Assembly (NCBI GenBank): GCA_030248195.1 | Contig: JASAND010013091.1 | Span: forward strand, 1 to 64,000 | Direction: 5' to 3' | Origin: Trissonchulus latispiculum | Taxonomy: Eukaryota > Nematoda > Enoplea > Enoplida > Ironidae | Length of the DNA stretch: 64,000 nucleotides | Shown here: one piece after another, positions 19,686 to 64,000 of the stretch | Layout: every line of letters starts with the position of its first letter | Numbering within the stretch: position 1 is the first letter of the stretch | Notes under the pieces: model-generated | Databases searched by the model: none | What the model was told of the DNA's origin: nothing | Seen by the model: only the letters and a program-made list of their open reading frames with translations | Program-made: the position numbers and the translations under genes

Positions 19686-20260
19686 TTCATTACAAGAACT
19701 TATACTTGCATTAATATGATTGCAATTGTTCCTAACAGCTGGAGCAGCAGGCGGAATGGAAATCCAATCGGCCACCCTACCTTGGCCTACCCGTAAACGG
19801 AGGGGCGGAAACGCTGTCAAGTCAGGGCTGTAAGCAAGAGCTTGAGAATACGTCACATTCTGCATGGGAGGATCGGGCAAGAGATGGGGTCGGCGACGTG
19901 GAGAAACAGGATTGGCAATCGATTTGAGACTTTGAGCAGTTGTGCTTTCGTCAGCACAGCTGCCACGGAAGCTTCTGAAAGGACAAAACCGGCGCTTGTG
20001 TCCCGGATGTTGACACTGATGGCATATAACCTGACCAAAGTGCCGCAGCCGACAATTTCCAATCACGTGCCCCCTGACGCCGCAGTGAAAGCAAAGGGGA
20101 GCGGATGTCAGACCACGACTGGTTGGCACAGTACTCCTTCGCTTTCGTATAAAAGGTTTGCGAACCGGCTCCAGTGGAACTTCACCATCTCGAACTATCT
20201 GCACAGTTTCCCCCATATCTGCGATATCGTAGTTGCAATCATAATCAGACTCATGGCCCA

Positions 20261-20712
20261 CAAATTTTCTCAGATCCATGAGGATGCAACCGAGTTTGTT
20301 CTGTCCAGGAAAGATGGGTGACGCGAGAGTAGCGTCCTTGTGGAGTCCAGTGGTCCAGAATGCATGGCTGGATGGATAGGTGGAGTGAGCTAAGACGGCA
20401 TCACCCGACTTTCGCAGAGCGTCACGGTAGGATGCACACTGCTCCAGCTTAGCTTTTTGAATGTCCGTCATAAGTAGCACTTCATATGACATGTCGCGGT
20501 TCGGTACCGAGCGGCAGACTTTTGCCCAGTCTTTTAGCTGCCATTGGGCTGAAGCTCTTAAGCACTTTCTTGGCGAGTTCATCATATCCATAGAAAAGCA
20601 GCCTATTATATTGAAAGGCATGTTCCGCAGATTTGAACTGGACTCCATCAAACTGAAAATCAAAAATATAAAAACATGAAAGGGGATCTGTTGATCCAGA
20701 GAACGTGATCAC
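20261..20712 (-). pseudogene. NADAR (YbiA-like) domain inside the LINE ORF
   Basis: The N-terminal part (20712-20482) has the F-x-G-V-x-F-x-S-A-E-H-A-F-Q-Y segment characteristic of NADAR/YbiA proteins. After a frameshift the C-terminal part (down to 20261) has the K-L-x-Q...L-R-K-S-G-D-A-V-L helix and the G-Q-N-K-L-G-C-I-L-M-D-L-R ending that closes the family fold. The usual W-G-x-G loop reads W-T-T-G, so activity may have been lost or altered. NADAR proteins are known to hydrolyse N-glycosidic/ADP-ribose linkages. Zinc knuckles follow in the same frame. Confidence 0.8.
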
Positions 20713-37664: not shown

Positions 37665-38246
37665 ATGCTTAGGAGTTGCTTAGCGCCGCTCAGTCGTCAA
37701 CTGAACCATGCTGTACCCGTCAAACGCGTTCATACAGCGGCTCCCCTCTATAAGACTGCTTTGGATCGAAGACAGCTGCGAGCTGGCCATGTGATAGATG
37801 AAGGTGTGCCGGGTGAGAAGTTTTTCTGGCTGGATAAGCGAATGCTGGAAGGCCGATTCCCGACCCTGGAAACGGAGACGGAACTGTTTGATGGAATTCC
37901 TTATACCGACCTTCCTGTATGCCATATTAAACTGTCCAAAAACAATACCATCATGTGCATGACTGTCAACACTTTTCCCAAAACGCTCACCTCGGCCGGG
38001 ACGGAGGGATTCCGAAATGCCAAGAAGGGGACTAGTGTGGCTGGCCAGGCGGCCGGTATCAGTATGGCTCTGAAAGCTAAGAAACTGGGAATGTCCATTT
38101 GTAAGGTGGCCCTGCGGGGATTGGGACCGGGTAGAATAGCGGCGATTCGCGGACTTCACATGGGAGGAATGAAGATAGTCTCTATTACGGATGTGACCAA
38201 ACTGCCTGAACTGGGGCCTAGGCCTCGAAAAGCTAGGCGGTTATAG
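37665..38246 (+). CDS. MRPS11: Mitochondrial ribosomal protein uS11m (MRPS11)
   Basis: A single-exon coding region of 193 aa. Residues 1-30 are rich in Arg, Ser, Leu and Ala and lack acidic residues, as expected for a mitochondrial presequence. The rest is the uS11 fold: FDGIPYTDLPVCHIKLSKNN, TLTSAGTEGFRNAKKGTS, A-x-A-A...A-K-K-L-G and the conserved C-terminus LRGLGPGRIAAIRGL...SITDVT with a basic RPRKARRL end. The protein is part of the small mitoribosomal subunit platform. A polypyrimidine-AG (CTTTCTTTTTCAG, ending 37645) sits 19 bp before the ATG, so a 5' UTR intron is likely. It is convergent with the Reeler/EGF gene. Confidence 0.96.
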   Translation: MLRSCLAPLSRQLNHAVPVKRVHTAAPLYKTALDRRQLRAGHVIDEGVPGEKFFWLDKRMLEGRFPTLETETELFDGIPYTDLPVCHIKLSKNNTIMCMTVNTFPKTLTSAGTEGFRNAKKGTSVAGQAAGISMALKAKKLGMSICKVALRGLGPGRIAAIRGLHMGGMKIVSITDVTKLPELGPRPRKARRL

Positions 38247-46173: not shown

Positions 46174-47767
46174 TGTAATGAAGTTGCTTTGATCTGAATT
46201 AAAGAATCGCTTTCTATTTCGTCCTAGTTCAGCCTAGTCGGTTAGGGCTCTATAGCAACTCAATCCTTTACACGGAGGGTCAGCGCGTCTGCTAGGATTA
46301 GCAAACTTAGACACAGGATGCCCAAAAGGTGGTTTGTCCAGAAATGGGTATCCTTGTAGCCAACCCGGATGGGGTCCTGGTTGTGAGTTCGTTTGATGGA
46401 TGGGGATGGAGAGATGGAGACAAGCGGGGTCGATGCCTGTCTTTCTTGAGACTGGAGTAGTATCAGTTCACAACAGTGAGTTCTGATATATATCTTGATA
46501 GACTGATCAAGATATACTGACGGATGATTCTTCTTGGTTTCCTTTGATGATCAGGGATCGGGATCTAAAACTCTAGATCCTTCACTTACTTGCGTAGGGG
46601 AAGAGGTTGATCCTGATCCAATGGCTTTGTCCAGTGTATGTGTGCACCCTAGGTCAAACACTTGCTGAGGCACACTTGAATTTATTAAGAATTAATGTAA
46701 TTCTCAACAATTACAATGATTAACAACTACAATGGTTATATGAAGAATAATAATAATAATAATAATAAACACTGTAATTATGATACTATAGGCAATAGAA
46801 TAAATGAATCTACAGGGTACAATTCTAACGATACAAAACACAGATTATAGGGTTGCCAGAGTTGCCAGTTCCAAACATAAACGTTTGATTGTTTTAAATT
46901 GCGGGACAAGACTTTAGATTATGACTACTCACTATTACTTCTTCTTCTTCTTCTCTCTGTACTACTAACCTCAACTACGGTATCCTACTGCTAAACTCTG
47001 TGCCTTCCCTATATGCTTGTGTTTGTGCGGTCTATCTGCGGTCTATCTCTTTATCAGTCCTTTTAAAACAAGGACAGTACTATCAATTATAATCAAAAGT
47101 AATAATAATAATAATAATAATTAATGATAATTAGTTCAGTACACACAAAGCAAATTCCGGTCCTTGGGTGAGCCCAAGAATGCTGTTCCAATCTCCTACA
47201 GCGGAGCACACAGCGCACTGTTCCCGGATGCTATTCGGAAAACCTGAGGGGTCTAACACAGGGGGACGGTCTGGCTGGGGGAATGCCTGGTACGGTTATA
47301 TAAACAACTTCAACAATAAATTAATTTAATTTATTAAATTATCTTCCTTTAGATCTTCCTGAGTTGTTTGACTCTTTAGCACAGATCAAAGGGGAATTCC
47401 CACCCAAGCAGAGCAAGAAGGGCAAAAGCAGAGATCATCTTTTTTGGTTGATAATTGAAAAACAAAGATTAAGTTCTCTTGTTTAGGTTTTAGGTCCCAC
47501 ACTAGATTCCGGTGCCGTATCCGCGATCGTTCCTGCCTTAATCGTTGCAAAACCGTCCAATCTGACTCTCAAAGTACCTTATCTGACTGTGACTGATCCA
47601 AAACCAAACAGCTGAGCAATGTCCTTCTCCGGACTGAATACCAAGTAATTATCTGACCAAATTAACAGCACTGAGGCTTCAAATAGTAGGCAATCGCAGG
47701 GTGACTCTGGCAGGATAGATGCTCACTTCCGCACCTGAATCAAATGGGTTAAAACCCATTAGTTACA
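46174..47767. other. Candidate long terminal repeat (about 1.6 kb), single copy in window
   Basis: Starts TGTAATGAAG and ends ATTAGTTACA, i.e. TG...CA with 5-bp inverted TGTAA/TTACA tips. Six bases further right is a TGG-initiated tRNA-like motif. It contains GATCAAGATAT-type repeats (46490-46520) and an AAT microsatellite. No second copy is in the window and the left flank is the homopolymer block, so the call rests on termini only. Confidence 0.3.
46746..46769. repeat. (AAT)n microsatellite
   Basis: Eight AAT-type units. A second, similar run lies at 47100-47123. Confidence 0.95.
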
Positions 47768-47773
47768 CAATTA

Positions 47774-47792
47774 TGGTGCGGGATTCGAACCC
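47774..47792 (+). promoter_or_regulatory. tRNA T-arm complement: possible primer-binding site or B-box
   Basis: TGGTGCGGGATTCGAACCC is the reverse complement of a sequence with a T-loop (GGTTCGAATCC) ending CACCA. Next to an LTR this would suggest a primer-binding site on the plus strand. However, the acceptor-stem part is too short for a normal tRNA 3' end, and the large ORFs lie on the other strand. On the minus strand it also fits a Pol III B-box. Confidence 0.3.
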
Positions 47793-50700
47793 AGCAACCA
47801 TTACTCACTTATTGGCTTTCTGAGATCAAAACTGAACTTGGGAAACTCAAGCTAATCACAATAAACGAAATTTCTGACATTTTGATACAGAATTGAGAAA
47901 ATTCTAACACTTAATCAAGATTCTGGGGATATTTTAATAAAGATGTTGTTTTTGAGCAATTTCCTGCAATTCCGTGCAGGAAATTGCGATAAAGGTGTAA
48001 TTTTACTTCATACCTTCCGTTTTTGTACTGTTCCAGGTTGGAACACCAAGATTAAAGTAGATCCACAATTTATAATGGTTTGACACTAACTAGACAATTT
48101 GTGGTTATTCTTGTACCTGCATAAAACAATCATATAATTTCATAACGGTGTCAAAACATTTGGGGCCCTTGTTCTGGCCCCAGAGTTCAGGGCAGTAACA
48201 ACTCCCTGTAATTGAAGTATCCCATGATTTGAAACTAGAATAGTAAAAGATAAAAAGGTTGGTTTGATTAGAAGATGGTTCATTTTACCCTATCCATATT
48301 TCTTACGTACTTATTTACTATTTCCTCTATTTCAGGTATACCATTAATTATTAAGCAACACCATACAAGATTTTTTTGATTTTCGACGTTCATTATTGCC
48401 ATTTGAGAGTAGTTGACGAAACTTGGATTAATACTAAACGTGAACATTGGTACGGTTGATTTTGCAACCGTACCAGCTATTGAGCAACCTGGGTTTGTTA
48501 CTCTTGGCTTTAGATATGGTGCAAATGAGAAACAGCACCTACTCGTGATTGTAGTCATTATTACGGCTAAACACAAACTGGACTTGACTGACTAAACTAG
48601 AAATGGCAATAGTGACCTCTACTTGTTTTGGAAATAAACCAACAATACCTTAACTAGAGAATTATTATTAATACTTATCCTTACGTAATACTGCTATACT
48701 TCTTGTGCATGGCAGATTTGCAACTGTAGTCATTATTAGGAGCTAATTACTAACAGGATTTGACCTAGCTAGTTGGTATTGGCTATAAATACATTTGCTT
48801 CATTTGGAAATAAATTGACAGTGTGCATAACCGAAGAACATAGTACTTCTGAGTACAGAAATTATTTTGACACGAACCGCATTTACTAACACAAAATCAG
48901 CAATTTGTATAATCCCTTTTTATGCGATTCGTCCGCACTCTTGATACAGAGTAACTTACGCGGACGAATCGAGGATCTCCCAATATGGACTGCCGCGAGC
49001 CTAATACGAGGTCCTGGTGACCTTAGATTCTCGTGCTCATACCTCATTTGCATATTTCCTATTGTAACCTAAAACCTAAATTGCTTACGTAATTCCGCAC
49101 CTGCAACTTTCGGACATGCATACAAAACTTGGTTACCTTATTTACCTGCATACTACCTAAGTTTTGGGATAATTTCGGTGCTTCGCACAACCCACGCATA
49201 CAGGCAGTCACTATACATTTAGACAATCGTACTCCAGATCGATCGTATCATACAAACTGTAACATCCACGTACACCGTACACAGTTCAATACTTAACTAC
49301 GTAAACTTATTTCCGAGCTAAACAATCTCTAACAGCAATTACACAAACATTTGGACTAATGATTAATAAACATTCACACTACACTTGTACATCATTTAGA
49401 CTAGAATACACTCATATCAAACTCTAGATACCTTCGTTCACATGAACCACAAACATACCTTTATCCTGCTTAATATCTGAGTTTTCGTTCACTCGACGGT
49501 GCTCGCAACCTTCGTCAAACAGAAGGAGTTCCCGCGAGTCACAACACGCATATATACGATCACGTAAGTTCACACGAAAATCATTCATACACTCATACAC
49601 ACGCAATCATACAATTTCTTAGCTAATCGTTACTTAACTGTTTCTAACTACCAACCTAGTTACAACTGCAAATACGACATTTCCTGATACTAGCTACAAC
49701 TAATGTTATTAATCTCTTAGTGATTATTTTAAATGTAACCTAATAATATTAACTACTAATTTTCGGAACTTTGTGCAAGTTTTGGTGCGAGTTTTAATGT
49801 TTTAAAAACTCGACTTTTAGCGCAGAAGTTTGAGAAGTTTGTAGTATTTTTGAAGAAACATTTTGGGAATTTTATGAAAGCCATGTGAGTAATGATTGCC
49901 AAGCAATCATTACTACAAAAACTACTACAACACATTAATATTAACACATAAACAACTGGACAGGGAAGCCGGTCATTCCCTTTTAAACTTCTCAATAATT
50001 AATTAAATAGAACAACTCATAACTTTTAGAATTCGGATTAGACGTCCTAGATTTTTGAAGACCTATGATTTTGTAACCGACCTAAAGCTGAAATAAAAGG
50101 CGTAATACAGAACAGTAACATTTCGGGATTAACTGCGCCTGGATTAACAATATGGCCGGCAACTCCTAGTTGCCGGCTGTGGGGAATAAACCTTAGAACT
50201 AGCTCATATTCTTCTGAGGGTCATACTTTTGAAGACCCGCTAACTCATCTTAAGGAGGTGGGGTCCCACTCATTTTTCCCAGAAACTGCAAAATATATTA
50301 CTCTTTCCTATAAAAATAAACTACGATTCAAAAATCGTGGCTTGACCGAAAGTTTAAATGAAAAAGATAACATGAAAAGAAAGGTGGCTAGGCAAATCTC
50401 AAGACCCCCATCACACAGGAGGAGTTTACATGAGCTGCCTTTTAAAGGGAAATAATAAAAACAAGAAGTGAAATGATAAATAAGGGACAAAACTCAAGAC
50501 CTCCATCGAACAGGAGGGGTTTACATGAGCTGCCCCAAAACAAGAAATCATAAAATAAAATATAGAAATAAACTAAAATTGGCCTTGGGCCCACTCATGC
50601 TAGAAAACTGAAAGTTGGCCAGAAGGCCTCGCATCAAAAAGGTAAAAAGTTATGCCCGTAGGCTCAAAAATAGTACATAAAAAAGAATGGCCCGAAGGCC

Positions 50701-53210
50701 CACATGCGTAGAAAAGACTGGCCGAAAGGCCCAAAAAATACATGTATAAAACTTGGCCCGAAGGCCCAAAACAAATAGAAAAAATATGGCCAAAAAAGGG
50801 CGGCCTTTTGTTCCTAGATTTTGTTCCTCGATTCAGAAATTGGCCGGGCATACAAAACCCATTCGGCCCTTAATTGTAAGTGTTCGTGTTATTTCTTCTC
50901 ACTTTCTTTTCTAGCCCGAAGGCTAGAAAAGTCCCTATATTTTTACCTAACCGGGGGAAGGTACGTTGAATTCTCCGTGCCAAAACTCTGGCACACAGCG
51001 GAGAACGCACCTGGGGGAAAGGGGAAAGCGACTGCTTTCAGCCGCATCTCAACGAACACTGAACTTTTGGAAAAATTTTGGGACCGAGCTGACAGCTATC
51101 TGACAGCTCGGTGACAGGTCATTAGCGCGGTTTGCGGCGGACTTTGCTTTGTTTTTAAGGCAAAGCTTCTAGAAAGTTCTAGAACTTTCTAGAAGCTCGC
51201 CACCTTTAACATTGGCAGACTAGGGGCTTGCCAGCGGGCCAGTCCGCTGAGCCTGAAATTAATGAGATTTTTAAATTATTGCCCCTACAACTGACCCTTT
51301 TTTGATAAATTTTGGGTGCTGAAATCTGGCGAAATTTTGTGAAATTTTGGTTAACACGTAAACATAACCAAAGGGGCCAGATTTAGCTTAAATTTTCAAC
51401 CTTACCCAATTTTCTCAAAATTGGGCTTAAAATTCATCATATTTTGTACTATATTTGGAAAAATTAATATTAAGTCGGGATATTTCACCCAATTTGAATG
51501 TCTGTTTTATATTTTCCTTACTTTAACAGGTCCTTGTTTACTGGACCCCTACTTTGAGTTTTGAAGCCAACTTTTGCCAGTAAACAAGGGACGCTGTTTG
51601 CTGGCCTTAGCGACAATTGCTCCTCATTGCTGGACTTTCTATGTCCTCACATGACTGAGACTAGGGGAGCAATTGTAACAAGAAATATGCATAAAAAATC
51701 ATACGTAATTTTCTGTGAAATAAAAATTACATTTTCGTAATCTACGTACTTTATTTAGTATAACTAGCTGCTTTCATCAAAATCAAACAATTTGGGAGGA
51801 GGGTAAGCCCCCTCCAAACTAATATATCTACGTAAAAGTGTATACTAACTTTGAGGAAAGGCGAGTTTCTATGCTGGCCTTTGGCCAGCCTAAAGGACAC
51901 TTGAGGACACTCAGAGATGTAGAACATGAATGAGGGTGTTAGGACACCTGTTACCTATGTAGCAATTAGGAACCAATTAGGACCCAATTAAGCACTTAAC
52001 ACAAAGGTTTTTAAGGAGGCCAACTTTAAGACACTCCTTCTAAAGAAGCAAGATTACGAAAGAAGAAGCAATTTCACTAAGACATTTTTATTTATAACTT
52101 GCTTAATTTTGAGAGTTAGAAAGTGGGAATTAGATTTTCGGAATCGGGAGAAACTCGCCTTTCAAATGAGCCTAAGTTATATTTTCACCTAAAATTAACC
52201 AAATTAACCAATAACTACTAAATTAATATTAATTAACCTATATTACATCATACTAATAGCTACTTAACTAATTATTACTTGAATTTGAACCATCTTCCAA
52301 CAATTTGGCTATTTTTAATGACTTTCAGTACTACACTCTTTTATTGGTACTTAAATTCCAAACTTTGAGGACATAAAAGATCCTTTATTTCTCTAATAAA
52401 AACTGGAGAGCATCCTTACAGCTGTTTATTTGGCATTTCCGACCGGGAAATAGGGGAATTGAAAGTCCTATCTCGGACTTAATAAGAGTAACTACTCTTT
52501 CGACTGGAATTCGTGAATCAGTGTTAGTAACGGGGGTTAGTACGATTAATAATTGTTTAAGCTTCCATCATTGGTTAATACTAATCTCTTGATCAGTTCA
52601 TGTTTACCGCGTGTTTGATTTCTTTTTATTGTCAATTAATTAATACTTGAATCTAAAATCTTAGTCCCTAATTGAGTAATAGTAATTTGAACTCGGCAAC
52701 TCTGGCAATTTGGAATAAGACATAACAAAATACATTCAACAACTTAATCATTAATTCCAATCAGATCAATCATTATTAAGCCGGTACTCGTCATTTCCTT
52801 TATACTGATGGATTCACTTCTTCATATGATTTTTTATTCACCATTTAGATCTTGAAATTCACTTTTTAACCTTTGTGAAACTCCTTTCATTACAACCTCC
52901 ACAAGAAAAATGGCTGATATTTTAACTAGGGGGGAAGACCAAAATACTAAAAAAAATTCTCCACAGAATTATCATATCAATAACCATAACTTCATAAACT
53001 GCATGACCATAATTATATTAAAGACTGATAAAGGTATCTGCGTTCTGTGCATTGCGTTCTAGTCATACTTATTATTCTTGTCTATTCTTCATATTACTAA
53101 TCAATACTTGATCATTATTATATTTCTTGTGCATTCACGCCTACGTTAGAGTTCACTAATATCTCTGTGATTACTGTCCTTCTTAAATCTGAGTCTTACT
53201 TACTTGCTTT
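47793..53210. other. AT-rich non-coding region with many perfect hairpins
   Basis: No ORF is convincing in about 5.4 kb. Perfect stems lie at 47956-47987 (13 bp, loop ATTCCG), 48448-48475 (11 bp), 48925-48971 (12 bp, 23-nt loop), 50155-50177 (10 bp) and 50906-50931 (11 bp, CGAA loop). From 50630 to 50790 several short GGCC-CGAA-GGCC hairpins are spaced 30-60 bp apart, and GCTGGCC-TTT-GGCCAGC lies at about 51873-51889. Confidence 0.6.
51166..51195. promoter_or_regulatory. Perfect six-unit heat-shock element
   Basis: Six contiguous alternating nTTCn/nGAAn pentamers: CTTCT AGAAA GTTCT AGAAC TTTCT AGAAG, without a mismatch, forming a near-perfect palindrome. Heat-shock factor trimers bind three or more such units. 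No TATA box or start site can be assigned with confidence. Confidence 0.75.
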
Positions 53211-53470
53211 AGGTGGGGTCGACCTTCTATGGGTCCGTTCCGCAACCACCTCATATACCTAATTTGCATATCTTCTTCAGGTGGGGTCGACCTTCTGTGG
53301 GTCCGTTCCGCAACCACCTCATATACCTAATTTGCATATCTTCTTCAGGTGGGGTCGACCTTCTGTGGGTCCGTTCCGCAACCACCTCATATACCTAATT
53401 TGCATATCTTCTTCAGGTGGGGTCGACCTTCTGTGGGTCCGTTCCGCAACCACCTCATATACCTAATTTA
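53211..53470 (+). repeat. 68-bp tandem repeat, 3.8 copies, each with an octamer motif
   Basis: AGGTGGGGTCGACCTTC starts at 53211, 53279, 53347 and 53415, an exact 68-bp period with almost no variation. Each of the first three units ends with AATTTGCATATC, containing the ATTTGCAT octamer recognised by POU factors. It resembles enhancer repeats of retroviral U3 regions, but this is only by analogy. ORFs through it are artefacts of the repeat. Confidence 0.95.
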
Positions 53471-54763: not shown

Positions 54764-56074
54764 TTATCGATCATAGGGATCATAGGTGAGGATTTCATGT
54801 AGATAATCCTCCATGTACTCTTCTTCGAGAGGGGATTCCAATTCCCGCTCATCAACGGATTCCCGGAGGGCGCGGGCTTTCTCATGGGCAATTATTTTCA
54901 ATTCCCCAATCTGTCTCCAATACTCGATCACAGGAATGATTCCTGCGTCGAGACAGCTATCCAGAGCTCTTAATTCCCGCTGAATGTAGGCGGGCACATC
55001 ATCTCGCCATTCCTCAGGGAGGAGGGGGGCTTTGATATCCAAGGGGGGAAGGGGATCCAGGTCAGGGTCGAGCTCTCCGGGAGCAAGACGATATAGATCC
55101 TCCTGGGTAGGCTCATTCGGCTCTAGGAGTGCATTGAGCCGGGTCATCAAGGGATCGTCCGGAAGGTCATCCCCATCTGGCGTCCGGACCTGGGTGCTGT
55201 TTTCGTTTCCAGTGCTGTTATTCCTTTCCTCATTCCTTTCCTCCTCAGCAAAAAATGGGTAGTTTTCCGACTGGGGGGAGGAAGGTACAGAAGTTGTGGG
55301 CGTTTCAGTGGGCGGTCCATTGGGGCGGTGTAGGGTCGGATAAGGGGCGTAACGACCGTAGGGAGGGTCAGGATAGAGCGGGCGCTCTACCCGGAATCGA
55401 GGGTGATTGATGATGAGAATAATTTCCTCTCTGAGATCTTCTAATTTCCGGAGGAGGAGGGCCTTATCCGCCATAGTATTTCTCTCCAGATTAATCTGAA
55501 TCAAAAAATTTCGGAACGCGGATTGTATTTCGTCATGCGGAGTCATGCCAGGCGTGGGCCTGATGGCATTCTCAAACTGAATTTGAGTGTCCCTGAGCCG
55601 GAGACCGGCTTGATCCATGCTGGATTTATAATGCGGGTGTTGTGCCGCGGCAGGGTATTTCTTCAGTTCAGAGTACATCTGTAGGAGATGATCCACCCTG
55701 TAGTATTCCGGTGTGTGGAATGGGTGGTCATTTAGATCCCGCAGCTGAGTATATTTCCCCACGGAATGGGGGACCTGGACAGGGCAATTTGTGGCAGCTT
55801 TGGGCTCCCCGAATCCAGCAAATGGCGTATTGCATTGTGGACAAACGTCCACCGTAGGCACGATGGGGGCCACGGTAATCGGGCGGAATCCCACAAAGGG
55901 GACATTGGGACGGGGCACAGGGGCCCTGTGTCTGATCGGTTGACCAGCCAAGCATGGGGTAGGGACTCGAAGTCCCGGTAATGCCATAGGGTTTCTGAAG
56001 GCTGGATTCTGCCCAGCGGCCATAAGCGGGGAATACGATCTGGGCACAGATGAATCGCTGGAATTGCCAGACAT
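54764..56074 (-). CDS. Pro-rich protein with acidic C-terminus, third ORF of the virus-like element
   Basis: 436 aa, not recognised. Residues 1-70 are Pro/Ser-rich. A CPQC...C short Cys cluster lies at about 78-103. The middle (about 110-225) is predicted helical with charged heptad-like stretches (ALLLRKLEDLREEIILI). Residues 225-270 are Pro-rich, and from about 275 to the end the protein is Glu/Asp-rich with DPL and LPP repeats. This layout (disordered, helical, acidic) is seen in viral phosphoproteins, but that is analogy only. The ATG lies 14 nt downstream of a good 3' splice site. GC content is higher than the flanks. Downstream of the NADAR ORF, same strand. Confidence 0.7.
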   Translation of the reverse strand: MSGNSSDSSVPRSYSPLMAAGQNPAFRNPMALPGLRVPTPCLAGQPIRHRAPVPRPNVPFVGFRPITVAPIVPTVDVCPQCNTPFAGFGEPKAATNCPVQVPHSVGKYTQLRDLNDHPFHTPEYYRVDHLLQMYSELKKYPAAAQHPHYKSSMDQAGLRLRDTQIQFENAIRPTPGMTPHDEIQSAFRNFLIQINLERNTMADKALLLRKLEDLREEIILIINHPRFRVERPLYPDPPYGRYAPYPTLHRPNGPPTETPTTSVPSSPQSENYPFFAEEERNEERNNSTGNENSTQVRTPDGDDLPDDPLMTRLNALLEPNEPTQEDLYRLAPGELDPDLDPLPPLDIKAPLLPEEWRDDVPAYIQRELRALDSCLDAGIIPVIEYWRQIGELKIIAHEKARALRESVDERELESPLEEEYMEDYLHEILTYDPYDR

Positions 56075-56450: not shown

Positions 56451-58055
56451 TCAATAGTATCTGGATCGCTTCTGAGCCGGGGGGCGTCGCTGATGAGGGG
56501 GGTAAAGCGACAGATTCATCAGATTAGGCAGGGGGGGTGAATCCCTCTGCTGCGGGAAATGAACGCGCCTGTCGGGTTCAGGCGCTCTTCGGGGGACATG
56601 GGGACGACTGGAAGTGTCCCGATTTCGAGGAGAGACGCTCCGGCGTCGTTTGGCCTGGGAGTAGCGCCGCGACTGAGAATAGTCCTGTCGTCGGCTAGGA
56701 GGGGAGCTGTTCCGCTTCTTTTGCTGACATTCAGAACAGACTGACGACTGAGTATCAGGAGGGGAGGGATGTCGTGGTTTGAAAATGGGAGAGTCCTTAT
56801 GCGGCCTTTTCTGCTTGTAAGTGGCAAATGGCTGCCACTTTGAAGAGGGAGGGGTGAAGGCCTCCTTCACTCGCTGATGCGTTTCAGGCGCGAGGATGAA
56901 GGTCTGCTCGGTCGGGATTGCGACCGGATCTTGAGGTTTGAAGTGGGTACCATCCGATCTGATGGTATAGCAACCCCAGATTAATGAGGCCCAGGCAGGG
57001 TCACCCTTCATGATTTTGGTCGGGTTCGCAGAGGCAGGCACGTAAACGATGGTCGGGAAGGCCCGGACCATAGGGAAGGGCTCCTGGTATTTGGGCCCAT
57101 TTCCTAAAGCTTCAGATAGCCTTTGAGCCTCCAGTTGGTAGATTGGTCCCAATCTTTCCTTCTCTCGAACTTCCTTGACGACGCTAATCTCCGGAACCAC
57201 AAAGATCTTGGTCAGGATCGGAGAATAAATGGCGATGGCCACACGGTAGCATCGGGCGGGCGTGGCCATCATGATAGGCAATAGGAGTGGATCAGAGCAT
57301 CCAGACTGCTCTTTGATAATATCAATAATCTGGTTGTTGCGAAGGGCGCAACCGCCAATCACAACAACTCTGGGAGTGGCCGGGTAGAGTCCCTCCGGGT
57401 CTTTGTAATACACCCGGTAGAACTCAAGCAATTGGCCCATGAAGTTGGTGGCCTGATGTTCCTCAGCCTTTTCAATGGCCCACAAATCAGCTCCTTCTTT
57501 TGAGGAGCGAAACTCCTCACAGCGGAGCTCAAGAAGCTCCTCTCCGATGCCCCAAAATCTATCACCTGTGGCTTCCATCAGGCGTCGATTTCCAGTTTCC
57601 ATTAATTCCCTCTGGAAAAAGGGAATTGAATACTTAGACAGGAGAACACCTGCCATGACCAATACCTTGAATGGGAGGTGGGTGTTAGGGTACGGGAGGA
57701 GACACCCCAGCCGTACATTGTCCTTGGCTAATTTCTTGGCCTCCGAGGGCCTCTCATGACGGAGGACCAATTTCCCGATCTTGAAGGCGCCAGCCAGGTC
57801 TGCAATGACCGACTGATAATGATTCTCGGCCGTTAGGCCGCTTTTTCTCAGATGTCGGATTTGAATCTGCTGGTGGTTGGCATCCTTTTCAGGGTGGCGC
57901 GCGAAATTCGAGAGGGTTTTAAATTCCTCCGAGTCACTTCTAAACCAAAGGAAGTCGCCAGGGCGGTCAGGTCTGTAGGGCAGTTGAAATACCCTAAGCT
58001 TCTTGAGCTGATCGATAGCACTCTGGTGCAGCTGAGCCTGGCTGAGATGATTCAT
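56451..58055 (-). CDS. NADAR-domain protein with basic Ser/Arg tail, second ORF of the virus-like element
   Basis: The start is set at the Met directly after a 3' splice site (534 aa); the frame itself is open 40 codons further up. Residues about 36-200 match the NADAR/YbiA family: F-x-x-L-S-N-F near 45-51, T-A-E-N-H-Y-Q near 75-81 (family E-H-Y-Y-Q), S-E-A-K-K-L-A-K near 104, and M-E-T-G-N-R-R-L-M-E-A...D-R-F-W-G-I-G ending near 171. NADAR enzymes cleave ADP-ribose-type N-glycosidic bonds, including ADP-ribosylated guanine. The middle (about 235-400) is not recognised. The C-terminal 110 residues are Arg/Ser/Pro-rich with one CSEC pair, suitable for binding nucleic acid. It could be structural as well as enzymatic. 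Confidence 0.78.
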   Translation of the reverse strand: MNHLSQAQLHQSAIDQLKKLRVFQLPYRPDRPGDFLWFRSDSEEFKTLSNFARHPEKDANHQQIQIRHLRKSGLTAENHYQSVIADLAGAFKIGKLVLRHERPSEAKKLAKDNVRLGCLLPYPNTHLPFKVLVMAGVLLSKYSIPFFQRELMETGNRRLMEATGDRFWGIGEELLELRCEEFRSSKEGADLWAIEKAEEHQATNFMGQLLEFYRVYYKDPEGLYPATPRVVVIGGCALRNNQIIDIIKEQSGCSDPLLLPIMMATPARCYRVAIAIYSPILTKIFVVPEISVVKEVREKERLGPIYQLEAQRLSEALGNGPKYQEPFPMVRAFPTIVYVPASANPTKIMKGDPAWASLIWGCYTIRSDGTHFKPQDPVAIPTEQTFILAPETHQRVKEAFTPPSSKWQPFATYKQKRPHKDSPIFKPRHPSPPDTQSSVCSECQQKKRNSSPPSRRQDYSQSRRYSQAKRRRSVSPRNRDTSSRPHVPRRAPEPDRRVHFPQQRDSPPLPNLMNLSLYPPHQRRPPAQKRSRYY

Positions 58056-58843: not shown

Positions 58844-61800
58844 CTAATATTCTGGGGAGGCAGGCTCTTCTGGCTCCTGAGACCATGGGGCTCCGGATCG
58901 ATTACGAGTTCGTTCTCGAGCTTGTGGGTTTGATTGGGGGTTAGTTGTCCGTTCTTCCGAATAGTGTTGCGTCGTTAACGTGTCCCGGGGTGGATATCTG
59001 GAACCCTCGCGCGGGATTGAGTAGTCCAGGGGCATGTGATCGTCTTCCTCATTAAGGTATCCTCCTCCGAACCCGGGGGGTACATTTATTCCGCATTCAG
59101 CGGCTCGACGCCTGTAACTTCTTTGTTCTGTAGTAGCGGTTGTCCGCGGGACACGGGGTTGATCGACCGTAGGTGGAGTAGGATGATTAGGATGTGATGC
59201 TTGTTGACTTTCCCTGGGCAAATATCGTTCCCCTATTAATGCAGAGCGGTACAGGTCATGCAGGCTTTTGGCTTTATCTGGGTACATGGCTGTTCGATCA
59301 CGAATTTCATTTCTTAACCCGGCAATAAAAAGTAAGCTGAGATAGGTATCGACAGATTTGGCAGTTATTCGTTCAGGGTATACTTGTCCAGCATAGGCGA
59401 GCAACCGTTGGTAGAAATTATCCACTGACTCGTTTTCCCTTTGTGAAATTGTACTCAACAAGTCTCTCCATGCGCGAAAATCCTCAGGAGATTGAGTAGT
59501 TCTATCGGCAAGTCTTGGTGTTACGGTTGCAGCAGGTCCCGACAGAGCCTGTGACGTAGAAGCTCTCAACCGGGTTGATGGGCCTGGTCTGTCCTTATAG
59601 AGATCCTCTTCAACTGAGAGAGCCATAAGATACAATTCATCTAATCGACCGGTAGAGATGGGCATTTGAAGGCGTATTTCTCTTTGAAGTCCAACAACAA
59701 AAATTCTTCCCATATTTATCATAGTTGATTCTGAGTTAATGCAATCACCATAGACATTATCGGCATATTCACGAACTCTATGATAATATTGCTTTATGGT
59801 TTCTAACTCACCTTGCTTAACTGGAGATATAGAAGACGTCGACGGGTACGTTTTAGAAGGTCGAGGGGAGCGGGCTCTAGCTCCTTGGGAAGCGTCTGTT
59901 TTAACATTCGATGTGTGATGTGGTGGGGCAGGAGGGGCCAGGATCTGCCTTCTGAGATCTCTGGAGATCATTTCCGATACTCTATGTGTGGTTGTTAAGG
60001 GAATTGAGTATGCCGCAGAAGGGGGGGTGAGGTGTATTTTCAGCTGTTTTGTAGGCAGGCAGAATTCAAAAGAACCACTGAATTTAGCCAGCACATCGAT
60101 GCCTAGTAACATTGCCTGTGGTAACTGAGGGCTAACTAAAATAGCGTGAGGGATCGGTGGGTGGTTAGGACATCCTGGGAAGGAGATAGCTGTTTCGAGT
60201 TTCTTGGTGATATTCAATTGGTGTCCGGTGGCTGAGGAACTTTGTCGTGGACGCTCTAAATCCGTTAAGGGGAAGTTGTGCCTTTGAGCCATTTCTTCGG
60301 ACATCACAGTAATACTGGCCCCTGTATCAAGGACTGCTTCAATGGTAATTCCGAGAATGGATATGTCAATACAGGGTATAGGTAGGATTGTGGGAGTAGT
60401 TCTATGTGAGTAGTCAACTTCATCCATCAGGCACCAGATCCTATCTCTTCTGCCAGTAGATGAGTCTCTGGATCGATTACCTTGATATGGCGGTGGAGTT
60501 AAGGCTCGGGCTCCAGCTCTTCCAGCATCAGGACTTGCGGCGCGCAATGGTGGGCTTTCTCGTTCGTATGATCCAGCTCTATATTGGTAAAGTTGATGAA
60601 AGGGTTCATCTCCTTGATGGTCTTCTTCTGGTCCAGATAATAATGGTCTTCTGGGTCTGATGGGGTTGGGGTATCCTGATTCTGGAGAATAAGGTGGGTA
60701 AGGCGGTAATGGTTCCAAGGGAATGTCTTCAAATCGTAGTTGTCCTCTTCCAGATGGGTATGCGCAGGAACGAGGTCTAGCTCCTTTAGCTCTACCTTCT
60801 GTGACAGAGTGTATTGGATGTAAAGGTCCTTCCAGTAGGGGTGACCTACTGCGCAATTCAGATGGGCTAGAACTAGCGGGGGGTGAAGTTGGGGGAGAGG
60901 TTGGAATTCTTTGGGTTCCTGTTCCCAATTTACTCAATCTTTGTCCTAAACCAAAACATGATCCACGTATTCGGTTTAGAAGGTTAGTTCTGAATTCAGC
61001 CATACATGGGGAGAACCAAATGGTAATAATCACTCCTATCACAATCAGGATGAGGATAATAATGAATCCTGTCCAAACGTTCATATTGAGCGGGTGGATG
61101 ACGAGTGGTGCGGTACGATGATGCTTTTCTAATAGTTTCTTCACCGCTTTGTTTTCATATTCTGCTCTTTCCAAATCGGTGAATTGGATGGGGACTACAC
61201 CTAATTCAGGAGCTTCAAAGGGGACTCTGTAAGTAATGAGAGGTGCAGAGTATTGTACAACCTCTATTGCACTGGTTAGCACCAAGTCGCCAACTATGAT
61301 GTGGTTGTAGGATCCGTGTTCTAACCATATCACACCGTTGCTGGGCACTGCAATTGTTTCTCCGCGTGACACATGTTGTAATTGTGGAGTTTGAGTTAAC
61401 ATAATTTCGGAATGACTAGTTCTGATCAGTACTCCTGCTGGAGTAGAAGCAAAATCTGTGTCAGGGGTCAGAACTTTCACCATCATCTGTTGTCTGCAGT
61501 TAGCGGAGTCAATGGGTGTAGCTGAAACAATGGCTTTGAGACAGGCGGATTGGGGAGTTGAAATCAACGCTTCAGGTCCACAAACCCACAGTCCGGGTGA
61601 AGATTGGCATTGTTCAAGCTTAATTTCGGAGAACTCAGAGCTATGATGGGTAACTTCGTGTCTGACAAAACGAGGAACTGGAGCCTTCATTTGAGCATGA
61701 TTTGAAGGATCATTGTATCCAACATTGCTAACTTCATAAATGGGTGCCACATCTTCTCTCGTGGGGGTGGGTATTTCCATGATAAACCCAAATAATAATT

Positions 61801-64000
61801 TTCTGATGTCCATTCGCACAGGATAAATCTTCCCAAATCTATAGATCAGGCTGGGCTCGTCCCTCAGGATTGTTTGATTCAGTTGAGCATGTCCATTTAC
61901 TATATCGCGGATGATCTTGTAATTGATGAGACTGGGGGAAATCCGTCCATCCAGTCCGGCGGCCATGACGCTATCAATGCTATGCTTAAGGGAGTGTTCA
62001 AAGTTAGATACAATCAGAGAATACTGCACCTGAGTGCTCATAGTCAGAGCTTCACATCGTGCTGAGTTGATCAATCCCACCAATTCTTGTAGTGAGAAAT
62101 GCATGAAGGAATAGACTTGTTCGTTAGTTTCAACTAACTTTTCTAGAGCTTCAGTGTGAGCGATCACTTGTTCGTCTAGTTTCTGAGTTGCTTCGATGAT
62201 GGCATTGACTTTTTCTTTGATGGATCCCAAATTGACAGTGTTAGATATGGACATACCAAGTCCAACTATACCAATGACTGCACCGATAGCTCGTTTAGAT
62301 CTTTGGAGAGGAAACTTAGATTGAACATGCTGGTACCCATGATCTGCATACAAGGATTCATTGTATTCTTGATATTTAGGCTTTGAGGTATTACATAGTA
62401 TAGGACTCTTATCGCAGATGATTTTCATAACAGACGAATAATACCTTGTATTAAGTATTCCACCATACATTTCATGATATTCCTCAGTCACATTTCTGAT
62501 CAGTCCAGTTAAATGAGGTTCATGGGGGCAATCAGCAAGTAGTTCATTTGCTCGATTCCGAGGGGTATCACATTTCTTACATTGTTCTCGGAGACTTTCT
62601 GGAACGGAAGATGGTTCTCCTCCACAAAGAGAACAGAAGAATACCCATGCTTGCATTTTCTTAAGTTGTGGTGGTTTGGGCATTTTCATATGGATTAGGA
62701 TTGGGACATATTCTGTTTTACTGTAGGTCGCCATGAGTCCTTTAGGGGATAGAGCCAATCCCCATTTAGTTGATACCATAGTATTCATTGCTTTGGCTTT
62801 CTGGGTGAAATAATCCTCACTTCCCTGTGCTTGTATGCAGGGGATCAACATAGCTATCATTAACCCAAAGGCGATCCACATCACTAGAATGGGAAAAGGT
62901 AGTGAAGTTGAACCTTTCACCTTGCTAGACGGTTTAGTCTTGGGACATTCGTCATGTTTGTCCTGGGGGGGAGATGGATTATCTTCTTCTTTTGGTAGTC
63001 GCATCGTCGTCGGAACAGAGCTTGACCTGGGATTATTCTTGTGACTTAACGAGGGAATTTTTCTTCTTGGTGAGGGTGGAGGATCAGTTGTTCTCCTGAT
63101 AGGATGAAGGGCTTCCATACGGGCTCGGGCGAGTAGGAATTGTTGATACGATTCCCAAGATCGTTCTCTTTCTCTTTTTAATTGCCAAACTCGTCGCTCT
63201 TCCTTCTGAGCTCGTTTTCTTTCTTTACTCCGGACATCTTTCAAGAGCCTACGGAGAAACTTGATATCTTGGGGGCAGAGATCAGATTCAGGAATATGTA
63301 CTTCTCCGATTGTTTTCTTGATCTTGTTGATAACCTTCTTCCTTTTCTTTTTACTCTTTCGGTTCTTTCTGGTCTTTATGACAGTAGGCTCTACAGCATT
63401 GAGCTTTACTCGAACCTCTCGGCTTTTGAGCTTCTTTGTGGCATCTTCTAATTCTTCATCTGAATCTTCTGACATGTCTGAACTGGAGGTGTCCGTTGGG
63501 CTGTCCATTAGATCATTTTGGATTAATTTGCCTTGGAATAGGTCAAACGTTTTGTCCTGGAGACAGGGATCAATATTCTCCTTGTTATCACCCCTTAGAC
63601 CCAACGTCAAGGGCATAGTGGAATCCTTCCTTTCTTTGTGGGCTTGCATTAGTCTCCGGGTTAAGGGTATTGATGTGCTGAGGAGGTTTTCAACCCAGAG
63701 ATCCAATCTTCCGGCATGAGGTGATTCTTCAGGAGCTTCCAATATATCGCTGTCAAGGCAACAATAGAATTCTTCATCGGATACTGATCTCCCAAGTCGT
63801 TTCAAAATTCTTCTGCTGACCTCATAGATTGCTTCTTGATCAATGATCTTGAATCTTCCTCGTTCAGGGTGTTTGATAAGATCACTGATCTGATATTCCA
63901 TCTGGACCGGGGAATGTGACCCATTTTGGGTCATGAAAATACTGGGATCTAGGGTTCGCAAGAGTTCTTCTTCAGTGAGCATTTCTCCAAATCTATCCAG
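58844..64000 (-). CDS. Envelope - retropepsin - Gag-like polyprotein, 5' end beyond the window
   Basis: Open from the window edge to a TAG at 58844; numbering here starts from the Met at 63982 (1712 aa), with six further codons open upstream. Order: basic leader (1-360; Lys-rich 200-290); signal/anchor segment (361-386); Cys-x2-Cys pairs (450/453, 468/471); furin-type RSKR (561-564); Ala/Gly/Ile fusion peptide (565-580); heptad region (585-640); membrane anchor (970-990); Pro-rich tail with PPPY (1163-1166); retropepsin with DTGAS (1219-1223) and L-L-G-I-D-V-L (1292-1298); two Gag-capsid-like modules (about 1390-1460 and 1500-1590, each with F-x-x-G-L-x-x-E-I). It probably enters membranes via a class-I fusion mechanism and self-processes. 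No RT or integrase in view. No stops or frameshifts, so it is young or maintained. Confidence 0.82.
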   Translation of the reverse strand: MDRFGEMLTEEELLRTLDPSIFMTQNGSHSPVQMEYQISDLIKHPERGRFKIIDQEAIYEVSRRILKRLGRSVSDEEFYCCLDSDILEAPEESPHAGRLDLWVENLLSTSIPLTRRLMQAHKERKDSTMPLTLGLRGDNKENIDPCLQDKTFDLFQGKLIQNDLMDSPTDTSSSDMSEDSDEELEDATKKLKSREVRVKLNAVEPTVIKTRKNRKSKKKRKKVINKIKKTIGEVHIPESDLCPQDIKFLRRLLKDVRSKERKRAQKEERRVWQLKRERERSWESYQQFLLARARMEALHPIRRTTDPPPSPRRKIPSLSHKNNPRSSSVPTTMRLPKEEDNPSPPQDKHDECPKTKPSSKVKGSTSLPFPILVMWIAFGLMIAMLIPCIQAQGSEDYFTQKAKAMNTMVSTKWGLALSPKGLMATYSKTEYVPILIHMKMPKPPQLKKMQAWVFFCSLCGGEPSSVPESLREQCKKCDTPRNRANELLADCPHEPHLTGLIRNVTEEYHEMYGGILNTRYYSSVMKIICDKSPILCNTSKPKYQEYNESLYADHGYQHVQSKFPLQRSKRAIGAVIGIVGLGMSISNTVNLGSIKEKVNAIIEATQKLDEQVIAHTEALEKLVETNEQVYSFMHFSLQELVGLINSARCEALTMSTQVQYSLIVSNFEHSLKHSIDSVMAAGLDGRISPSLINYKIIRDIVNGHAQLNQTILRDEPSLIYRFGKIYPVRMDIRKLLFGFIMEIPTPTREDVAPIYEVSNVGYNDPSNHAQMKAPVPRFVRHEVTHHSSEFSEIKLEQCQSSPGLWVCGPEALISTPQSACLKAIVSATPIDSANCRQQMMVKVLTPDTDFASTPAGVLIRTSHSEIMLTQTPQLQHVSRGETIAVPSNGVIWLEHGSYNHIIVGDLVLTSAIEVVQYSAPLITYRVPFEAPELGVVPIQFTDLERAEYENKAVKKLLEKHHRTAPLVIHPLNMNVWTGFIIILILIVIGVIITIWFSPCMAEFRTNLLNRIRGSCFGLGQRLSKLGTGTQRIPTSPPTSPPASSSPSELRSRSPLLEGPLHPIHSVTEGRAKGARPRSCAYPSGRGQLRFEDIPLEPLPPYPPYSPESGYPNPIRPRRPLLSGPEEDHQGDEPFHQLYQYRAGSYERESPPLRAASPDAGRAGARALTPPPYQGNRSRDSSTGRRDRIWCLMDEVDYSHRTTPTILPIPCIDISILGITIEAVLDTGASITVMSEEMAQRHNFPLTDLERPRQSSSATGHQLNITKKLETAISFPGCPNHPPIPHAILVSPQLPQAMLLGIDVLAKFSGSFEFCLPTKQLKIHLTPPSAAYSIPLTTTHRVSEMISRDLRRQILAPPAPPHHTSNVKTDASQGARARSPRPSKTYPSTSSISPVKQGELETIKQYYHRVREYADNVYGDCINSESTMINMGRIFVVGLQREIRLQMPISTGRLDELYLMALSVEEDLYKDRPGPSTRLRASTSQALSGPAATVTPRLADRTTQSPEDFRAWRDLLSTISQRENESVDNFYQRLLAYAGQVYPERITAKSVDTYLSLLFIAGLRNEIRDRTAMYPDKAKSLHDLYRSALIGERYLPRESQQASHPNHPTPPTVDQPRVPRTTATTEQRSYRRRAAECGINVPPGFGGGYLNEEDDHMPLDYSIPREGSRYPPRDTLTTQHYSEERTTNPQSNPQARERTRNRSGAPWSQEPEEPASPEY

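What the first reader, a model, noticed from the sequence alone, without database searches (positions are those of the whole stretch)
58844..64000. One uninterrupted ORF with envelope, protease and Gag-like domains in reverse retroviral order
Known LTR retroviruses and retrotransposons order these as Gag, protease, pol, envelope. Here a single open frame runs leader, class-I envelope (furin-type site, fusion peptide, heptads, anchor), Pro-rich tail with PPPY, retropepsin, then two capsid-like modules. Because it is one frame with no stop, it is not a trivial juxtaposition of two elements. If real, assembly would start from a membrane-spanning precursor whose cytoplasmic side carries the late domain, protease and capsid. 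It may represent an undescribed lineage of retrovirus-like element, or a host gene built from viral parts.
Basis: partly seen in the sequence, partly recalled or inferred. Interest (0 to 1): 0.93.

Follow-up and report, generated by a model that had tools for sequence, protein, structure and literature searches.

The report
Envelope-bearing retroelement lacking reverse transcriptase
The long reading frame belongs to a large retrovirus-like element of an invertebrate that keeps its shell, envelope and protease genes in one frame but has no reverse transcriptase, and it seems to be copied with the help of sister elements that carry the missing enzymes at the same spot.

Summary
The frame is real but cut by the window edge. 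Upstream it continues into an ordinary Gag, so the order is Gag-Env-protease-two capsid-like modules, not reversed. It is ORF1 (2,505 codons) of a ~27-kb gypsy-like LTR element (3' LTR at window 46174-52894; 5' LTR beyond the window), followed by a NADAR ORF and an unknown ORF. Env resembles paramyxovirus F (this copy below the Pfam cut-off, some sister copies above). The genome holds two forms: B (22 long frames counted) has protease-RT-RNase H-integrase-OTU-like where A (this copy; 21 frames) has another protease and two modules like the capsid C-terminal domain. A and B share LTR end, PBS, PPT and, in pairs, closely similar DNA beside that cassette; Env and protease trees disagree, so two cassettes have moved between shared backbones. 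One of three A copies examined has near-identical LTRs: recent movement without its own RT. The A-only tail is under purifying selection. Env in frame between Gag and Pol is known from planarian Burro, RT-less Gag-bearing partners from plants; the combination I did not find in print. Best reading (inferred): A is mobilised in trans by B and supplies structural protein.

The parts
62891..64000 (-). ORF1, part: linker between Gag zinc knuckle and Env (Gag itself lies beyond the window, contig 66361 to 64001)
62834..62890 (-). first hydrophobic stretch (signal peptide or signal anchor), residues 371-389 of P0001
   Evidence: hydropathy
60971..62833 (-). F-like envelope, residues 390-1010 of P0001
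   Evidence: PF00523 (under cut-off), sister copies over cut-off; alignment; PDB profile
62291..62302 (-). furin-type site RSKR, residues 567-570
62234..62290 (-). fusion peptide, residues 571-589
61013..61069 (-). transmembrane anchor, residues 978-996
60485..60496 (-). PPPY motif in the cytoplasmic tail (late-domain reading is recalled, not tested)
60065..60388 (-). type-A retropepsin with LDTGAS active site (motif recalled), residues 1205-1312
59594..59827 (-). first capsid C-terminal-domain-like module, residues 1392-1469
59213..59455 (-). second capsid C-terminal-domain-like module, residues 1516-1596
58844..58846 (-). stop codon of ORF1
56451..58055 (-). ORF2 from its first ATG: NADAR domain protein
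   Evidence: PF08719 1.2e-8
54764..56074 (-). ORF3, no Pfam match
53207..53469 (-). 68-bp tandem repeat between ORF3 and 3' LTR
52895..52905 (-). polypurine-tract-like CTTGTGGAGGT next to the 3' LTR
46174..52894 (-). 3' LTR, 6.7 kb, TGTAATGAA...TTCATTACA; the 5' LTR is at contig 66545-73232, outside the window

Best explanation
This is the RT-less form (type A) of a Ty3/gypsy-like, envelope-bearing LTR element family that exists in one genome in two forms. Type B has one frame Gag-Env-protease-RT-RNase H-integrase-OTU-like; type A has one frame Gag-Env-protease-two capsid C-terminal-like modules. Shown by sequence: the two architectures, shared LTR end, PBS-like and PPT-like sites, near-identical LTRs in one type-A copy, exchange between the forms of the parts beside the cassette, purifying selection on the A-only part. 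Inferred: A and B RNAs enter the same particles; B's RT and integrase copy and insert A in trans; A supplies extra Gag and Env, needed because B's unbroken frame would otherwise make Pol in equal amount; the two extra capsid C-terminal modules tie the A precursor into the shell. Also inferred: the precursor crosses the membrane, with Gag and protease on the cytoplasmic side and the F-like ectodomain, cut at RSKR, outside.
For: Gag upstream in the same frame. LTRs. Type-B copies with RT, RNase H, integrase at the matching place. C659 (A) and C6651 (B): 90.4% over 5,080 aligned nt downstream of ORF1, ORF2 99.6% and ORF3 96.5% identical, while their proteases are only distantly alike (58% DNA window) and the parts after them do not align. 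Env of B copies C13074 and C4650 is 100% and 99% identical to the window's A copy. PR identity: A-A 69-100%, B-B 90-94%, A-B 49-58%; Env A-B 86-99% (13 A, 3 B). Env tree interleaves A and B (5 changes for 5 B rows, shuffled mean 4.6; one-clade test p 3e-8); PR tree splits them 100/100. LTR end and PBS-like site the same in 5 of 5 flanks read, 3 A and 2 B; PPT and LTR start in 3 A and the 1 B copy whose sequence reached it, that one with one base changed in the LTR start. C659 (A): 1 substitution and 3 gap columns in 3,302 columns of its LTRs. dN/dS of the A-only tail: median 0.168, range 0.10-0.28, 78 pairs. Tail modules match own capsid C-terminal domain, E 1.6e-5 and 4.9e-6 (probability 79% and 86%, against at most 0.7% and 1.2% in 20 column shuffles each).
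Against: No RNA, protein or particle data. Exchange could also come from recombination between genomic copies. Low dN/dS in Gag-Env of A could be borrowed from B by exchange. No target-site duplication at the window copy and its LTRs are a patchwork, so this copy itself may be a recombinant or locally mis-assembled. Of three A copies whose LTR pairs I saw, one is near-identical, the other two differ by about 6% and 12%; near-identity can also come from gene conversion. Mutual benefit (extra structural protein) is not shown; A may be a mere parasite. Type-B Gag may be made in excess by a mechanism I could not see. PDB sequences gave no match to the tail.
Confidence: 0.6

Rival explanations
1. 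Type A is a pure parasite (satellite) of type B: it keeps Gag-Env only because exchange with B refreshes them, and gives nothing back.
For: Exchange between A and B has been repeated. Low dN/dS in Gag-Env could be inherited from B.
Against: The A-only cassette cannot be refreshed by B, yet its tail (median dN/dS 0.168) and protease (0.047) are conserved, and the 21 intact A frames counted span divergent subfamilies, tails 44-100% identical to the window's.
Confidence: 0.25
2. A host gene built from viral parts.
For: Long intact frame under purifying selection.
Against: LTRs, PBS-like and PPT-like sites, 21 intact frames on separate contigs, a copy with near-identical LTRs.
Confidence: 0.03
3. 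Mis-assembly joining unrelated elements.
For: The window copy has no target-site duplication and patchwork LTRs; the assembly is fragmented, 21,732 contigs.
Against: Same junctions on many contigs and, for Env-protease-RT, in an independent public contig, P0127.
Confidence: 0.03
4. Env is an intron-like insert: Gag-Pol is made from RNA with Env spliced out, and Env from another spliced RNA, so no giant membrane polyprotein exists.
For: Retroviruses usually make Env from a spliced RNA (stated in a passage of PMC10309623). Nothing here shows the polyprotein itself. In the synonymous-site scan, of the 14 most constrained windows listed, those at residues 1151-1165 (z -3.0), 1018-1032 (z -2.7) and 1117-1131 (z -1.7) lie between Env and protease.
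Against: Frame stays open through Env in the 21 intact A frames and in the 14 of 22 B frames where Env was seen. The strongest window of the scan (z -3.8, uncorrected for many windows, 1,417 codons) lies elsewhere, and I saw no clear splice signal. The scan is a weak test.
Confidence: 0.25

Closest known systems
Burro giant gypsy-like elements of planarians (PMC6431247, section 7 read in full, other passages seen)
   Same: One giant frame with Gag, F-like Env in frame between Gag and protease, then protease-RT-RNase H-integrase; extra domains; accessory ORFs; very large LTR element.
   Different: No BCL2, BIR, MATH, ubiquitin-like or dUTPase domain was found by Pfam in the type-B pieces scanned (the capsid part of B was not scanned); an OTU-like end and a NADAR ORF instead; about 27 kb rather than over 30 kb; a host that is not a flatworm by its COX1 code; and an RT-less partner form. 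I had no Burro sequence to compare.
RLG_Cereba / RLG_Quinta of wheat (PMC11302176, passages seen, some from the abstract)
   Same: Autonomous and RT-less partners sharing LTR ends, PBS and PPT; the RT-less one keeps Gag and adds a domain; recombination between lineages.
   Different: Plant; RT-less partner described as coding only Gag and one unknown domain; here the RT-less partner has Env, its own protease lineage and two extra capsid modules.
Non-autonomous Athila of Arabidopsis (PMC2410132, abstract and section 5 read)
   Same: RT-less families keep intact gag, sometimes env-like, ORFs under purifying selection and recombine.
   Different: Plant; separate ORFs; no cassette in place of pol described in the part I read.
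TelKA elements of bdelloid rotifers (PMC5408684, abstract and first part of the results read)
   Same: Gypsy-like element with a paramyxovirus F-type envelope.
   Different: There Env is ORF3 downstream of pol; here it is in frame between Gag and protease.

Membership tests
Ty3/gypsy-like LTR retroelements (Metaviridae) | LTRs with TG...CA ends, PBS, PPT | tested here: met
   (PBS and PPT by resemblance; the PBS-like site lies 18 nt inside the 5' LTR)
Ty3/gypsy-like LTR retroelements (Metaviridae) | PR-RT-RNase H-IN in that order | tested here: met
   met in type B; not met in this copy, which has PR only
Ty3/gypsy-like LTR retroelements (Metaviridae) | RT groups with Ty3/gypsy in a tree | not tested
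   many of the best database hits are long RT-RNase H-integrase polyproteins; no reference tree built
Burro | Env in frame between Gag and protease, then pol | tested here: met
   type B; type A lacks pol
Burro | BCL2, BIR, MATH, ubiquitin-like, dUTPase domains | tested here: not met
   none in Pfam scans of the type-B pieces given; the capsid part of B was not scanned
Burro | sequence kinship with Burro RT and Env | not testable with these tools
   I had no Burro sequence to compare
Paramyxovirus-type class I fusion protein (PF00523) | profile match over the curated cut-off | tested here: inconclusive
   window copy 25.4 and 28.4 bits, under 29.8; 54 of 83 matches in the genome over it, 3 of them only with neighbours
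Paramyxovirus-type class I fusion protein (PF00523) | fold of F protein | not testable with these tools
   structure prediction switched off; PDB profile search: 7 of 9 hits at E up to 1 are F proteins, best E 0.0058
RT-less partner of an autonomous element (Quinta-like) | lacks RT and IN, keeps Gag, shares LTR ends, PBS, PPT with an autonomous family | tested here: met
RT-less partner of an autonomous element (Quinta-like) | mobilised in trans by that family | not testable with these tools
   inferred from near-identical LTRs of one A copy and exchange
Domesticated host gene | no LTRs, stable single copy | tested here: not met

The most novel reading that the evidence does not exclude
A bipartite, envelope-bearing endogenous retrovirus of an invertebrate: two genome types that travel in the same particle, B carrying the enzymes and A specialised as the structural genome, with its own protease lineage and two added capsid C-terminal modules that adjust Gag-to-Pol stoichiometry and lattice assembly in a system that has no frameshift or stop between Gag, Env and Pol.
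Probability: 0.25. Interest if true: 0.85.

Novelty: new variant of a known kind. Interest (0 to 1): 0.62.

Why it matters
Retroviruses commonly keep Gag in large excess over Pol by a frameshift or stop and make Env from a separate RNA (recalled). A family that puts Gag, Env and Pol in one frame must solve that ratio otherwise. A second, RT-less genome that keeps Gag-Env and replaces Pol by capsid modules is a natural solution, and would make division of labour between two retroelement genomes testable in an animal. It also extends the Burro-type order beyond planarians.

Tried and rejected
Reverse order of domains: rejected after reading upstream of the window. Host gene and mis-assembly: see rivals. 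Flatworm host: rejected, because AAA reads as lysine at a conserved COX1 site (site recalled). Single-sequence protein search with Env: 5,778 candidates, none at E 0.001. Dating the window copy by its LTRs: rejected as patchy, from 2 of 500 to 87 of 472 differences per full window. Synonymous-constraint scan for splice sites: nothing convincing. First PPT/LTR-start scan with an exact motif found only the window copy; a looser pattern found it in 2 more A and 1 B copy.

Papers: PMC6431247 (section 7 and passages), PMC5408684 (outline and results part 1 of 2), PMC10309623, PMC12220506, PMC11302176, PMC13172572 (passages), PMC2410132 (abstract, section 5). The eLife paper on metazoan envelope-carrying retrotransposons (Chary and Hayashi 2025, known to me only as a citation in PMC13172572) was not held and may contain related elements. 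'Not in print' rests on search only, seen as listings.

Full report
WHAT IS THERE. The minus-strand frame 64000-58844 is open over 1,718 codons and is cut by the window edge. The window is the first 64,000 bases of contig C8892 (75,748 bases) of a 733.8-Mb assembly in 21,732 contigs. Reading on, the frame continues for 835 codons with Retrotrans_gag (1.1e-7) and a CCHC zinc knuckle (2.4e-4). The likely start, MDQF, is at frame residue 49, so ORF1 is 2,505 codons, contig 66361 to 58844. Order: Gag capsid, zinc knuckle, long linker, hydrophobic stretch 371-389, F-like ectodomain with RSKR and fusion peptide, TM 978-996, tail with PPPY, retropepsin, two further modules, stop (residue numbers of P0001).

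THE ELEMENT. Two direct repeats of 6.7 kb flank it: contig 66545-73232 and window 46174-52894, 94.2% identical, both TGTAATGAA...TTCATTACA. A PPT-like CTTGTGGAGGT abuts the 3' LTR, and a PBS-like TGGAGCCCCCAGTGAGG lies 18 nt inside the 5' LTR. Total about 27 kb, internal part 13.65 kb. Two more ORFs follow: ORF2 with a NADAR domain (1.2e-8) and ORF3 without Pfam match. No target-site duplication is seen and LTR divergence is patchy, so this copy may be a post-insertion recombinant or locally mis-assembled.

THE ENVELOPE. PF00523 (paramyxovirus F) matches this copy below the curated cut-off (25.4 of 29.8 bits). Sister copies: L023 33.5 bits and L042 36.1, over it; L019 27.9 and L043 28.0, under it; L045, the most distant, no match at E 0.01. 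In the whole genome 88 of 115 candidates were scored, 83 matched, 54 over the cut-off, 3 of these only with neighbours; 0 of 14 control genomes, of which those named in my calls are prokaryotes, so a weak control. A profile of 20 copies finds F proteins first among PDB sequences, best E 0.0058, 7 F proteins among 9 hits at E up to 1. The cleavage site stays basic and the Env core is strongly conserved in the 20 aligned copies.

TWO FORMS IN ONE GENOME. P0001 as query gave 43 matches from 27 scored of 2,153 candidates. Some matches end near residue 1345 and lie in frames of 2,185-3,841 aa. In two of these read further (C6651, C17124) an RT-type sequence follows the protease; for C6651 Pfam gives RT (4.9e-40), RNase H (2.3e-40), integrase (H2C2 1.5e-19, rve 1.8e-10) and an OTU-like end (2.4e-4, 22.0 bits, under its cut-off of 23.3). 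I call these type B and the window's kind type A. Counting long frames from searches with each form's own end: type A, 110 matches from 110 scored of 486 candidates, 21 frames of 2,490-2,573 aa, Env seen in 21 of 21; type B, 116 matches from 116 scored of 489 candidates, 22 frames of 3,375-3,841 aa, Env seen in 14 of 22, not established in the other 8. Counts are lower bounds; many other copies are cut by contig ends or hold stops. Among the 21 A frames the tails of 10 are 69-88% and of 10 are 44-50% identical to the window's, so type A is old. A distant type-B frame (C7053) has the same Env at the same place at 51% identity over 560 residues, so in-frame Env is an old, stable trait. Outside this genome, 1 of the 120 listed best database hits to protease-RT (P0127, filed under a bacterial metagenome bin, probably a eukaryotic contaminant) has the same Env-protease-RT frame, env profile E 4e-125.

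THE TAIL. The two modules match the element's own capsid C-terminal domain by profile comparison (E 1.6e-5 and 4.9e-6; probability 79% and 86%, against at most 0.7% and 1.2% in 20 column shuffles each) and each other (E 1.6e-11). Pfam gives Retrotrans_gag at E up to 1 in 11 of 13 members, best 9.9e-4 (the window's, 19.7 bits, under the 24.1 cut-off); PDB sequences give nothing at E up to 5.

EXCHANGE BETWEEN THE FORMS. The DNA compared starts near the Gag zinc knuckle. Between A copy L011 and B copy L023, identity is 86-98% per 300-nt window up to about residue 1100 (most windows 92-98%), 83% in the next, then 58% in the protease window and about 57% down to 42%, in effect unalignable, beyond. 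The window copy and B copy L017 have 92-96% in the windows of residues 401-900 but 72-95% before Env. Downstream identity returns for some: C659 (A) and C6651 (B) are 90.4% identical over 5,080 aligned nt with ORF2 99.6% and ORF3 96.5% identical. For the window copy the 3' part does not match its Env partner C4650 (its ORF2 is about 50% identical to C659's, C4650's fragments 87-96%), so it is a different mosaic. Env of the B-type copies C13074 and C4650 is 100% and 99% identical to the window's. Protease identity is 69-100% within A, 90-94% within B, 49-58% between, while Env between A and B is 86-99% (13 A and 3 B rows). In an Env tree of 20 rows (15 A, 5 B) the label changes 5 times, the largest number possible with 5 B rows (shuffled labels 4.6 on average, so the label is not clustered at all), and one clade for A is rejected (p 3e-8; I had seen A/B similarity before the test; L043 is a long, compositionally odd branch). 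In a protease tree of 17 rows (14 A, 3 B) A and B part at 100/100. So two cassettes, PR_A plus capsid modules and PR_B plus RT-RNase H-integrase-OTU-like, have moved between shared backbones.

SELECTION AND ACTIVITY. Pairwise dN/dS among 13 A copies (78 pairs; of the loci fetched, L016, L019, L020 and L027 were left out as broken, aberrant or truncated): Env median 0.044, protease 0.047, A-only tail 0.168 (0.10-0.28). Among 3 B copies (3 pairs): Env 0.026, protease 0.025. Median dS is high (Env 1.38 in A, tail 0.83), so ratios are rough. The A-only tail cannot be refreshed from B, so its constraint speaks for a function of type A itself. Of three A copies whose LTR pairs I could compare, C659 shows 1 substitution and 3 gap columns in 3,302 visible columns, the window copy about 6% and C1134 about 12% divergence. 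C659 points to a recent insertion of an RT-less copy, unless gene conversion made its LTRs alike.

MECHANISM. Shown: structure, exchange, constraint, near-identical LTRs in one A copy. Inferred: B supplies RT and integrase in trans; A and B RNAs share particles; the precursor spans the membrane with Gag and protease inside and the F-like head outside; A raises the amount of Gag and Env relative to Pol. B has no stop or frameshift between Gag and Pol (frames of up to 3,841 aa), which makes a second, Pol-free genome useful, but usefulness is not proof. A parasite reading of A remains open. Splicing around Env is not excluded: a synonymous-site scan of 1,417 codons saw no clear splice signal; its strongest window (z -3.8) lies upstream of Env, while windows at residues 1151-1165 (z -3.0), 1018-1032 (z -2.7) and 1117-1131 (z -1.7), between Env and protease, were among the 14 most constrained. 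It is a weak test.

COMPARISON. Arkhipova and Yushenova (PMC6431247; author names recalled) describe planarian Burro with F-like Env in frame between Gag and Pol as the first such case, so that order is known. RT-less partners that keep Gag and recombine are known in plants: Athila (PMC2410132), and Cereba/Quinta, which also share LTR signals (PMC11302176). What I did not find in my paper searches is an animal, Env-bearing pair of this kind, with a separate protease lineage and duplicated capsid modules in the place of Pol. One likely relevant paper was not held.

HOST. Code-5-like mitochondrial code; nearest named COX1 about 71-72% (insects, priapulids, an arachnid), one unnamed at 77%. Species unknown.

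Noticed in passing
G000 (whole assembly); window 17318-17812 and 19338-20663, minus strand: NADAR domains are hugely expanded in this genome (2,478 first-look candidates; 150 scored, all 150 over the cut-off). One in the window (3.2e-6, under the cut-off) sits in a frame with an endonuclease-like match (8.9e-4, under the cut-off), near an RT fragment, like a decayed non-LTR element, so NADAR may be shared by unrelated retroelements.
   Followed up: partly
P0187 and P0210 (database hits): Two other RT-integrase polyproteins are listed with a NADAR domain (P0187, PF08719) or a macro domain (P0210, PF01661; domain name recalled): perhaps repeated capture of ADP-ribose-handling domains by retroelements.
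   Followed up: no
window 37665-38243, plus strand: Ribosomal protein S11 frame (E 3.7e-20), probably a host gene or retrocopy.
   Followed up: no
window 240-4429: ACTCGAGA arrays recur every 693 bp, seven times: looks like a satellite with a 693-bp unit.
   Followed up: no
L011/C1134 LTRs: Intact 2,555-aa frame although the visible part of its LTRs differs by about 12%; with the patchwork LTRs of the window copy this suggests that LTR mosaics occur in this family.
   Followed up: no
L041 (C17523:28493-29676): COX1 shows a frame break in a T run, either a sequencing error or a nuclear copy.
   Followed up: no
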